Positions 31,488 to 34,187 of a stretch of 64,000 bases of DNA are shown here, piece by piece. The stretch is from Methanothrix sp. (GTDB taxonomy: Archaea > Halobacteriota > Methanosarcinia > Methanotrichales > Methanotrichaceae). The notes beneath the pieces are model-generated. The model was given only the letters and a program-made list of their open reading frames with translations. It ran no database searches and was not told where the DNA came from. Made by a program: the position numbers and the translations under genes. How positions within the stretch are numbered: the stretch's first letter is position 1; each line of letters opens with the position of its first letter. The stretch lies in contig JAPKYA010000045.1 in the NCBI GenBank assembly GCA_026394565.1, positions 46,162-110,161 of the forward strand, given 5' to 3'.

Positions 31488-33437
31488 TTATCTAAAGCTA
31501 AAAACAAACGCAGTCTCCTCCCACGCCTTCTCCAGCAGCTTCCCGTAATACCCGGCATCGAACTTCGCCGCCGTCCTCTCTGGCTCCACCTCCCACCGAC
31601 CGGCATCCTTCACCACGTAACCTATCTCCATCCCGGGAGCCAATGTAATGCCCTGCTCCAGGTGAGCCTGTACCGCCGAAGCCTCAGCACATCTGCGGGA
31701 GTAGCGCAGCGTGCTAACCCTGCGATGAATGGCCAGCTCCCGGACGTCAGTCTCTCTCAGTTTCTCCATGTACCTCCTGGCAACGCCTCGGGCCTTGGGC
31801 TCTATCATCCTCAGCTCCTCTCGGCTCCGTGCCTCGCCCAGGACCACGAACAGCTCCTGCTGCATGCGGCGGACATACTCAGGCGTGTCTCCCTTGCGAG
31901 CCATCACGCCCCGGATCTTCATCTTGCTCGTGTCCAGTCGCCCGAAGTAACGGTTGTATGCCCCTGAGCCATCGGCCATAGGCAGGAAGGCGATCCAATC
32001 GTAGGAGTCCACCTCCGTCAGGATGCCCGTCTCTCCCTCCACGGCCTCCTTGAAGCTCGCGATCGGCTCGCCTATAACCCATAAACAGTCCACGATTCCG
32101 TGCAGGACCTGGAAGTCCATGTCCTCGGCCATCTCCTTGACCTGCATGAGCAGTTCCCTGGAGATCTCCGTGATCCTCTCGTAAACCTGGATCTGGCCGA
32201 ACTTGGCGTTCCGATAGCCGGTGTAGCCGAAGCAGGTAACGAGCATCCACTTCAGGACCGAGTCTATGCCTGCGTAATCCGAGTTGGTCTTCTTCAACCT
32301 CTTGGTCTCGATGCGCAAATCGAGCAGAGAGGAGAGCACGGTGCTCAGAAAGCCCTTCAGCTCGGGATCTCGAACGGTTTCGGGGGAGAGGTTGTACTTG
32401 ACGATGATAGTGGGGTAAAGCGAGGTGAAGTCGATCTGGTGGACATTCTCGTACACGCCCGGCTCCGGCTGGAACATCATGCCGCCTTTGTCGCAGGCCC
32501 TCAGCTCCGAGATGTTCCTCAAGCTCTCAGCGTCTCGCTTTCGGAAGGGCACGGCTACGCCCCGGCGCAGGGCTTCGAATACCTCGTAGCTGGAGATGAG
32601 CGTGCCGGGTGTGAAGCGGGAGGTAAGGTTCGGGGATAGGCCGGAGAGCCGGGAGGCCATGAGGACGCCCTTCAGGCCGCCCTCGGCATAGACAAAGCTC
32701 TTGGCGGTGTCTATTAGAATCCTGCCCTCGGGAATCATTGCACCCTCTTTGTGGTTGACTTTTCCATAGCTCCAGTAGGATCTGGTGGCCATCGGCTTGA
32801 AGAAACCGGTGCGACTGAATGTAGGCTCCAGGCCGTACCTCCTGGCCTTGCCGACCATGAGCGGAATCCAGGTGTCGGCATGGGGACAGAGGATCAGATC
32901 TGGGTCATGGGCTTTTACGAGTTCGAGGAGGTCGGAGATGACAGCTCTCTCTGGCCCTTCCAGCAGCCTCTTTCGGCCGTTTTGGACCTCGATGCGGGAG
33001 ATCACCCCGGGCATGGTGGGATCTCCGCCGGCCACCTGCAGCCCGAGGCTGGTTAAGGGGGTTTCGAAGTCCGGCGAGAACCGGGATTCGTCTCGGTCTC
33101 CGCAGGGAAACAGATCATTTTCCGCCATGTAGCGCTGGTCCTGGCGGACGTCCACGTTGTAGAACTCGGCTTGGTGACGGGTTTGGATCTCAATCTTCTC
33201 AGCCACTTTCCGGCCAGCGTAGATCCTGTGGCCCTGGAAGATGCCGAAGATGGTTCTGAAGCTGCATTCCTCTGCCATGAAGCGACTCTCCAGGGCCTCG
33301 ATCATTTCCCTGTAAGCGGGAGGGTCCTTGAGATGCATATAGAATGAGGGTGGATAGGCGACGCTGACCTTGGACAGCCCTCGTTCACGGCCCCAGAGCT
33401 CCACGCAGCCCTTGTAGTATGAGTCAAAAATCCACAT
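31488..33437 (-). CDS. Degenerate family B DNA polymerase (archaeal PolB2-like)
   Basis: 649 aa; motif A DFTSLYPTI, motif B-like LKWMLVTCFGYTGY, motif C position HGIVDCLWV instead of YGDTDS. Confidence 0.82.
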   Translation of the reverse strand: MWIFDSYYKGCVELWGRERGLSKVSVAYPPSFYMHLKDPPAYREMIEALESRFMAEECSFRTIFGIFQGHRIYAGRKVAEKIEIQTRHQAEFYNVDVRQDQRYMAENDLFPCGDRDESRFSPDFETPLTSLGLQVAGGDPTMPGVISRIEVQNGRKRLLEGPERAVISDLLELVKAHDPDLILCPHADTWIPLMVGKARRYGLEPTFSRTGFFKPMATRSYWSYGKVNHKEGAMIPEGRILIDTAKSFVYAEGGLKGVLMASRLSGLSPNLTSRFTPGTLISSYEVFEALRRGVAVPFRKRDAESLRNISELRACDKGGMMFQPEPGVYENVHQIDFTSLYPTIIVKYNLSPETVRDPELKGFLSTVLSSLLDLRIETKRLKKTNSDYAGIDSVLKWMLVTCFGYTGYRNAKFGQIQVYERITEISRELLMQVKEMAEDMDFQVLHGIVDCLWVIGEPIASFKEAVEGETGILTEVDSYDWIAFLPMADGSGAYNRYFGRLDTSKMKIRGVMARKGDTPEYVRRMQQELFVVLGEARSREELRMIEPKARGVARRYMEKLRETDVRELAIHRRVSTLRYSRRCAEASAVQAHLEQGITLAPGMEIGYVVKDAGRWEVEPERTAAKFDAGYYGKLLEKAWEETAFVFSFR

Positions 33438-33441
33438 AGGT

Positions 33442-33675
33442 CTATTCTTCCCGTCTCTTCTCCAGCTCCCTCAACAGCTCCACCAGCACCGAGAATACAG
33501 CGGCCTCCAGCGGATCATCAAGCGCATAGAATGCCTCGCTGGAATGCTTCTTTGCCATCTCCGCCAGCTTCTGCCCGTAAACTTGGTCCTCCTTCTTAAG
33601 CGCCCGGCTGGCCTTCATCCATCTGGCAGAGACGTCCTTTACGCCCATCCTCACGCTCTCGAAACTTCGTCCCAT
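33442..33675 (-). CDS. Small helical protein in PolB2-like cassette
   Basis: 77 aa; ends 4 bp before the polymerase start and overlaps the upstream gene by 25 bp. Confidence 0.65.
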   Translation of the reverse strand: MGRSFESVRMGVKDVSARWMKASRALKKEDQVYGQKLAEMAKKHSSEAFYALDDPLEAAVFSVLVELLRELEKRREE

Positions 33676-34187
33676 GAGTATGCCTCCAGTGTTTTCTGGG
33701 CTCCTTCTCGCATCTTCGGATCGGCTTTGGCATGGCCTCTCGCGGGAGATCTATCTCCTTTGTAGAAGCAGAACACCCGGTCGGCCAGATCTGTCATCCT
33801 CTGCAGATGCGGATCCAGAGCAGGCGCATAGAGCAGGATCATCGTCTCCCTGGAGGTCTGCTTCAGGGCTTGGGCCACGTACCCCACCATTTCCCCGGCA
33901 TCCTCGTAGAGCATTGGGTCGTGCTCTACGATCAGGAAGCTATGGTGGTTCTCCTCCAAGATGGTCATGAGCTGGAAGGATGTGAAGGCTCGGCGGACCT
34001 CCAGCTCGGTGAATTTGCGATCCAGTCGACTGAGGATGCGAGAGTAGTTGCCGCATATGTAGAGAATCTTATAGCGCTGCAGACTGAGGTTGCCGTTGAG
34101 GGCGCCGGCCAGCATCTCCACGGGGGCAATCAGGACATTGAAGGTCTCTGGGAGCATAGAGACGGCTGGGTGGAGTTCGATTTCCAT
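33651..34187 (-). CDS. RecA-superfamily-like protein lacking a P-loop
   Basis: Walker-B-like SFLIVEHDP and RETMILLYAPALDPHLQRMTDLADRVFCF; no GxxxxGK[ST]; start reset to 34187 (MEIELHPAVSM). Confidence 0.6.
   Translation of the reverse strand: MEIELHPAVSMLPETFNVLIAPVEMLAGALNGNLSLQRYKILYICGNYSRILSRLDRKFTELEVRRAFTSFQLMTILEENHHSFLIVEHDPMLYEDAGEMVGYVAQALKQTSRETMILLYAPALDPHLQRMTDLADRVFCFYKGDRSPARGHAKADPKMREGAQKTLEAYSWDEVSRA

What the first reader, a model, noticed from the sequence alone, without database searches (positions are those of the whole stretch)
31488..34187. Three-gene cassette: degenerate PolB, small helical protein and P-loop-less RecA-like protein
The polymerase keeps motif A (DFTSLYPTI) but has HGIVDC where YGDTDS is expected. 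It also lacks a recognisable DxE exonuclease motif I. It is overlapped by, or adjacent to, a 77 aa helical protein and a RecA-like protein that has a Walker-B-like strand (SFLIVEHD) but no Walker A. Archaeal PolB2 enzymes with altered catalytic residues are established. The linkage to a RecA-like non-ATPase parallels the bacterial ImuA-ImuB-DnaE2 mutasome, suggesting an archaeal translesion or damage-tolerance complex; that analogy is inference.
Basis: partly seen in the sequence, partly recalled or inferred. Interest (0 to 1): 0.8.

Follow-up and report, generated by a model that had tools for sequence, protein, structure and literature searches.

The report
Archaeal PolB2 DNA-damage-tolerance (mutasome) operon
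Three neighbouring genes of a Methanothrix-like methane-making archaeon encode an already described error-prone DNA-copying machine (PolB2 with two partner proteins), and a DNA switch in front of them, shared with the cell's main DNA-repair genes, suggests that they are turned on together with DNA repair.

Summary
The three minus-strand genes are the PolB2–PPB2–iRadA "mutasome" operon described by Timinskas et al. 2025 (PMC11791011). The window's PolB2 scores 858 bits against a cut-off of 516 for NCBIfam NF004416, keeps motif A, and has HGIVD where YGDTD is expected; HGIVD or HGIID is kept in all 30 PolB2s compared. The 77-aa protein has the PPB2 arm (MGRS, R3, R9). The 178-aa protein has no P-loop, models as a RecA/Rad51-like fold, and carries a C-terminal clamp-motif-like QxTLEAF/Y. 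All three genes are under purifying selection and co-occur across Methanotrichaceae, even where they lie far apart. New here: a promoter box (TACTTTCGCCCCGC, about 25 bp before an AT-rich box) heads every mutasome transcription unit examined. The same box precedes radA (9 of 9 Methanothrix genomes), RPA, ribonucleotide reductase, Nre and a repair-type radical-SAM gene, but not PolB3, DUF72 or radA of other families. This predicts an SOS-like regulon in a methanogen; inducibility is untested. The family's genomes also hold many duplicated and decayed mutasome copies, unlike PolB3.

The parts
33651..34187 (-). iRadA: 178-aa RecA/Rad51-like protein without a P-loop; first gene of the operon
33675..33698 (-). 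codons of iRadA Q164-S171 (QKTLEAYS): clamp-binding (PIP)-like motif; Q and L invariant in close relatives, normally the extreme C-terminus
33654..33674 (-). 7-codon C-terminal extension of iRadA (WDEVSRA) read into the PPB2 start; relatives stop at the junction
33442..33675 (-). PPB2 (arCOG07300-like), 77 aa, begins MGRSFESVR
31488..33437 (-). PolB2, 649 aa, DNA polymerase family B with altered motif C
32406..32432 (-). PolB2 motif A DFTSLYPTI (D336 kept)
32088..32102 (-). PolB2 motif C HGIVD (first Asp of DxD replaced by Ile, second kept)
32487..32492 (-). PolB2 D316-K317, the D(K/R) motif said to contact the PPB2 arm
33063..33071 (-). DFE at the place of exonuclease motif I (E not conserved in the family)
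34231..34244 (-). promoter box CACTTTCGCCCCGC, 57 nt before the iRadA ATG; shared with all mutasome heads examined and with radA, RPA, nrdD, Nre and repair radical-SAM genes
34211..34219 (-). AT-rich TATA-like stretch CATTTAATC at the usual spacing after the box

Best explanation
The cassette is a PolB2 mutasome operon. PolB2 is an error-tolerant family-B polymerase without proofreading. It is held on damaged template by a PPB2 trimer, whose MGR[ST] arm reaches into the cleft between PolB2 and iRadA, and by iRadA, a RecA/Rad51-like protein that has lost ATP binding and probably ties the complex to the sliding clamp through its C-terminal QxTLEAF/Y motif. The box and AT-rich stretch at 34211-34244 drive the whole operon and belong to a regulon with radA, RPA, ribonucleotide reductase and Nre, so the complex is probably made when DNA is damaged or forks stall. 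Shown here: gene content, motifs, selection, co-occurrence, and the shared box with its fixed spacing. Taken from papers: activity and mutagenesis role of Dpo2/PolB2 in Sulfolobus, and the modelled complex. Inferred: damage induction, clamp binding and lesion bypass in this organism.
For: NCBIfam PolB2-type equivalog NF004416 at 858.5 bits, cut-off 516. Motif A, motif B Lys, HGIVD/HGIID and D(K/R) conserved in 27 Methanotrichaceae and 3 haloarchaeal PolB2s. PPB2 R3 and R9 invariant from Methanothrix to haloarchaea. iRadA without P-loop, RadA/Rad51/RecA among the best Foldseek hits, C-terminal Q-x-T-L-E-A-[FY] kept. Same gene order on haloarchaeal plasmids, several beside orc1/cdc6 or an SOS-response-associated peptidase. 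In 33 family genomes at least 90% complete, PolB2 goes with iRadA (16/0/1/16, Fisher p 1.5e-8) and PPB2 (14/2/1/16, p 2e-6), including genomes where they lie apart. dN/dS 0.09-0.20. Box at every mutasome unit head examined and before radA in 9/9 Methanothrix genomes, RPA, nrdD, Nre and rSAM_link_UDG. [quoted passage not shown] islandicus (PMC11791011).
Against: Profile-profile comparison of iRadA with RadA is not significant, and no PDB sequence matches the iRadA profile; the homology rests on a medium-confidence model (pLDDT 75) and TM-scores near 0.5. There are no expression data for Methanothrix. The Fisher tests are not corrected for shared ancestry, and presence calls were made by eye from near-full-length matches. 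A shared box could mean a replication-linked rather than a damage-linked regulon.
Confidence: 0.83

Rival explanations
1. PolB2 no longer polymerises; with iRadA and PPB2 it serves as a structural or regulatory complex at stalled forks or on RadA filaments.
For: First Asp of DxD is Ile and the exonuclease motifs are lost.
Against: Motif A Asp, second motif C Asp and motif B Lys are invariant in 30 sequences; dN/dS is 0.12-0.13; Sulfolobus PolB2 with IID is active (PMC11791011).
Confidence: 0.1
2. The box marks a replication or cell-cycle regulon (dNTP supply, RPA, RadA) rather than a DNA-damage regulon, and the mutasome is made in every round of replication.
For: nrdD, RPA and radA also serve replication.
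Against: Nre, a repair-type radical-SAM protein and a translesion polymerase are not replication genes, and PolB3 lacks the box; the same gene classes (radA1, RPA, ribonucleotide reductase) are UV-induced in Halobacterium (PMC1224876).
Confidence: 0.25
3. The cassette is a decaying accessory or selfish element, one of many copies in this lineage, with no present role.
For: Many relics in the family; two further copies in the same genome are frameshifted or broken.
Against: All three window genes are intact and under purifying selection; complete genomes that carry PolB2 nearly always keep a full set even when the genes are unlinked.
Confidence: 0.05

Closest known systems
PolB2-PPB2-iRadA mutasome (Timinskas et al. 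2025, PMC11791011; Dpo2 operon of Sulfolobales)
   Same: Same three proteins, same order iRadA-PPB2-PolB2, MGR[ST] arm with R3 and R9, D(K/R) motif, altered DxD, P-loop-less RadA-like subunit, clamp-motif-like C-terminus.
   Different: In the window iRadA runs 7 codons past the usual C-terminus into PPB2. Across the family the genes are often split into separate units that share a promoter box, and copies are duplicated and decayed. A search of the paper's text for promoter and pseudogene found no mention.
E. coli Pol V mutasome (UmuC, UmuD', RecA)
   Same: Error-prone polymerase with a small oligomeric partner and a RecA-type subunit, by published analogy.
   Different: Y-family polymerase, UmuD' and an active RecA; the polymerase and the small partner are not homologous.
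Bacterial ImuA-ImuB-DnaE2 cassette
   Different: C-family polymerase and Y-family ImuB are absent here.
Sulfolobus Orc1-2 / DDRE (ANTTTC) damage regulon (PMC9738581)
   Same: A short upstream promoter element shared by damage genes, with Dpo2 among the activated genes; the window box contains ACTTTC.
   Different: The Methanothrix box is longer (TACTTTCGCCCCGC); some copies read ACATTC; the regulator is unknown.

Membership tests
PolB2 | Scores above the curated cut-off of the PolB2-type NCBIfam equivalog | tested here: met
   NF004416 858.5 bits, cut-off 516
PolB2 | Motif A Asp kept, first Asp of DxD usually replaced | tested here: met
   DFTSLYPTI; HGIVD
PolB2 | Proofreading exonuclease active site lost | tested here: met
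   Exo II and III motifs gone; a DFE remains at Exo I but its E is not conserved
PolB2 | Conserved D(K/R) motif | tested here: met
   D316-K317, aligned in 30 of 30 sequences as DK or DR
PolB2 | DNA polymerase activity and mutagenesis role | not testable with these tools
   Known for Sulfolobus from the literature only
PPB2 (arCOG07300) | N-terminal MGRT-type arm with conserved Arg 3 and Arg 9 | tested here: met
   MGRSFESVR; R3 and R9 invariant in 8 aligned sequences including haloarchaea
PPB2 (arCOG07300) | Three-helix protein forming a trimer | not tested
   No model was made; multimer prediction is not on hand
iRadA | RecA/RadA/Rad51-like fold | tested here: met
   Model pLDDT 75, pTM 0.76; RadA, Rad51 and RecA among the best Foldseek hits, TM (query) 0.44-0.53: moderate
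iRadA | Sequence-profile similarity to RadA | tested here: inconclusive
   hhalign probability 1-3%; the best local match of A3 with A4 pairs VRRAFT with VARAFNS
iRadA | No ATPase active site and no N-terminal helical domain | tested here: met
   No GxxxxGK[ST] in any full-length member; intact members are about 166-178 aa and start at the core
iRadA | Clamp-binding motif near the C-terminus in many members | tested here: met
   QxTLEAF/YS within the last 15 residues, Q164 and L167 invariant in 28 aligned sequences; binding itself not tested
PolB2 mutasome operon | Three genes adjacent, same strand, order iRadA-PPB2-PolB2 | tested here: met
   Window 34187..31488
ImuA-ImuB-DnaE2 | DnaE2 (C family) and ImuB (Y family) | tested here: not met
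   The polymerase is family B and its partners match no Y-family model
Orc1-2/DDRE regulon | ANTTTC hexamer upstream of the promoter | tested here: met
   ACTTTC in the window box; other copies in the family read ACATTC
Orc1-2/DDRE regulon | Bound by an Orc1-2 orthologue | not testable with these tools
   Needs a binding experiment

The most novel reading that the evidence does not exclude
Methanothrix has an SOS-like regulon. One promoter box (TACTTTCGCCCCGC, then an AT-rich box about 25 bp from its start) switches on the PolB2 mutasome together with radA, RPA, ribonucleotide reductase (nrdD), Nre, a repair-type radical-SAM protein and several uncharacterised small proteins. The box keeps the mutasome genes co-regulated after they have been split apart and duplicated around the chromosome.
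Probability: 0.6. Interest if true: 0.72.

Novelty: new member of a known kind. Interest (0 to 1): 0.55.

Why it matters
The trio extends a published but experimentally unproven complex to a methanogen family in which its parts can be followed as they split, duplicate and decay. The shared promoter box makes an open question directly testable: whether a methanogen mounts a coordinated DNA-damage response, and through which regulator. It also yields a short list of new candidate damage genes (a 154-aa helical protein, a 75-aa hydrophobic protein).

Tried and rejected
iRadA against Pfam, NCBIfam and PDB sequences: no accepted hit. iRadA profile against RadA profile: not significant. PolB2 on viral contigs: none found. 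Cassette carried by a mobile element: transposase-like genes lie near some copies (C75; G003), but no consistent element or boundary repeat was shown. DinB and PolB3 as relic-density controls: PolB3 has one copy in every genome where it was found, DinB few fragments. Box in haloarchaea: only 1 of 6 iRadA heads has ACTTTC at a like position, about what chance gives; four of them share a different element instead. Box before DUF72 or PolB3: absent.

Full report
What is there. Three minus-strand genes run 34187 to 31488: a 178-aa protein, a 77-aa protein overlapping it by 25 nt, and a 649-aa family-B polymerase starting 4 nt after the 77-aa gene. Related loci are labelled Methanothrix, Methanosaeta or Methanotrichaceae, so the window is a Methanothrix-like methanogen.

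Identity. The polymerase matches NCBIfam NF004416 at 858.5 bits against a cut-off of 516. In an alignment of 27 Methanotrichaceae and 3 haloarchaeal relatives with the genome's own PolB3, motif A (D336), the motif B lysine, the D(K/R) motif and HGIVD/HGIID in place of YGDTD are all conserved, and the Exo II and III motifs are lost. The 77-aa protein begins MGRSFESVR; R3 and R9 are invariant from Methanothrix to haloarchaeal plasmids. The 178-aa protein has no Walker A. An AlphaFold model (pLDDT 75, pTM 0.76) has RadA, Rad51 and RecA among its best solved-structure matches, at TM-scores near 0.5. Sequence profiles do not reach RadA, so the fold evidence is moderate. Its C-terminus carries a clamp-motif-like QKTLEAYS; in relatives the protein ends at QxTLEAF or QxTLEAYS. 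In the window the stop codon at that junction is missing, because the next base belongs to the PPB2 start (TCATGGGA, where relatives overlap as TCATGA or TGATG), and iRadA reads seven codons further.

Known system. Timinskas et al. 2025 (PMC11791011) describe exactly this trio: PolB2, PPB2 (arCOG07300) and iRadA, modelled as a 1:3:1 complex. [quoted passage not shown] The window trio meets the testable criteria and is therefore a member.

Linkage and co-occurrence. In six annotated haloarchaeal plasmid records examined, two hypothetical genes of iRadA and PPB2 size precede PolB2 in the same order, several beside orc1/cdc6-type genes and one also beside an SOS-response-associated peptidase; one record has an extra gene between PPB2 and PolB2. 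Three of the six pairs were read as sequence. In the window's own family the genes are often apart. In G003 (two contigs), PolB2 sits 90 kb from an iRadA-PPB2 pair and two more iRadA copies stand alone. Even so, in 33 family genomes at least 90% complete, PolB2 goes with iRadA (16/0/1/16) and with PPB2 (14/2/1/16) (presence taken; not corrected for phylogeny). dN/dS is 0.09-0.20.

Copies and relics. The same genome holds a second cassette with a PolB2 frameshift next to DUF72 and DinB (contig C39), and a broken third with two iRadA pieces, a frameshifted PPB2 and an IS3-type insertion (C75). In the iRadA tree the window copy groups with mostly stand-alone iRadAs, whereas its PPB2 and PolB2 group with cassettes that carry a different iRadA: the cassette is a mosaic. 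iRadA gives 125 matches in 26 of 31 family genomes, 36 of them in G026, many with stops. The replicative PolB3 has one copy wherever found, and DinB leaves few fragments. I have no mechanism for this turnover.

A shared promoter box. Upstream of unrelated iRadA copies the DNA is unrelated until about 60 nt before the ATG, where TCAC[TA]TTCGC[CT]CCGC appears, followed by an AT-rich box. The same element heads stand-alone PolB2 and stand-alone PPB2 genes and is absent directly before PolB2 and PPB2 inside the window operon. In 535 kb of neighbourhood DNA the core occurs 27 times, nearly always at a mutasome gene or relic. A 43-position model finds it once in the window, at 34209-34245. Genome-wide, the eight genomes of the window's genus searched have 7-16 matches at E up to 1, while G028 and G036 have none and G029, G039 and G067 one each. 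Genes behind further matches are radA, an RPA-type replication factor A, nrdD, Nre, a radical-SAM protein of family TIGR03916 (putative DNA modification/repair), a 154-aa helical protein, a 75-aa hydrophobic protein and a DUF2188 protein. radA has the box in 9 of 9 Methanothrix genomes checked and in none of five genomes of other families; PolB3 and DUF72 genes lack it. The AT-rich box starts 24-28 nt from the start of the core in most sites. Some of the weaker matches have no clear downstream gene and are probably chance.

Reading. ACTTTC matches the Sulfolobus damage element ANTTTC bound by Orc1-2 before damage genes, with Dpo2 among those activated (PMC9738581, PMC7744417, PMC6934391). The box-bearing classes radA, RPA and ribonucleotide reductase are ones induced by UV in Halobacterium (PMC1224876). 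So I read the window operon as a damage-tolerance polymerase under a shared repair promoter. A replication-linked regulon remains a live rival. Haloarchaeal iRadA heads do not generally share the box, so it may be confined to this family.

Verdict. The trio itself is a new member of a known kind. The promoter box and the predicted regulon are, as far as the papers searched show, undescribed, and they are the part worth testing.

Noticed in passing
L032 (G000 contig C39) 612-6222: Second cassette in the same genome: iRadA, an extra ~60-80 aa ORF (MELETAKEILAEVF...), PPB2, and PolB2 broken by a frameshift near codon 490; next to a divergent DUF72-DinB pair.
   Followed up: partly
L031 (G000 contig C75) 4426-9284: Third, decayed cassette: one iRadA, an iRadA fragment, universal-stress-type genes between, a frameshifted PPB2, an IS3-type transposase pair, and no PolB2.
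   Followed up: partly
G026 and other Methanotrichaceae genomes: Very many iRadA relics with stops (36 matches in G026), unlike PolB3 and DinB; cause unknown.
   Followed up: partly
L006 4509-4760; L032 2791-2964; window 58079-58168 (minus): A small ORF family (MELQTAKEILAEVFxARPGEVEEMI...) sits between iRadA and PPB2 in several cassettes and also elsewhere, in places behind the same promoter box (G012 C25).
   Followed up: partly
L194 533-1006; L195; L196; L197; L198; L201; L251: A conserved ~154-aa helical protein without Pfam or NCBIfam match lies behind the box in seven genomes: a candidate new damage-response gene.
   Followed up: partly
L226 275-502; L239; L247; L233; L200: A ~75-aa hydrophobic, probably membrane protein (MVVGRTLWDF...) behind the box in five genomes.
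   Followed up: no
L140, L264, L265, L266 upstream of iRadA: Haloarchaeal iRadA heads share a different element, about CCTGAAACGCGGAAGCGACACGCCGCGGCTTATC.
   Followed up: no
L109 8103-9020: A UvdE-like (UV endonuclease type, judged by eye only) gene lies near an iRadA-PPB2 pair in G017.
   Followed up: no
L215 397-2199: nrdD of this genome carries an intein (PF14890).
   Followed up: no
window 34335-34343 (plus): TTTATATAT, probably the TATA box of the divergent ORF 34406-34948, which has no family match.
   Followed up: no
window 28949-31606 (minus): P-type cation ATPase gene directly downstream of PolB2 on the same strand; the longest ORF reading overlaps the PolB2 end.
   Followed up: no
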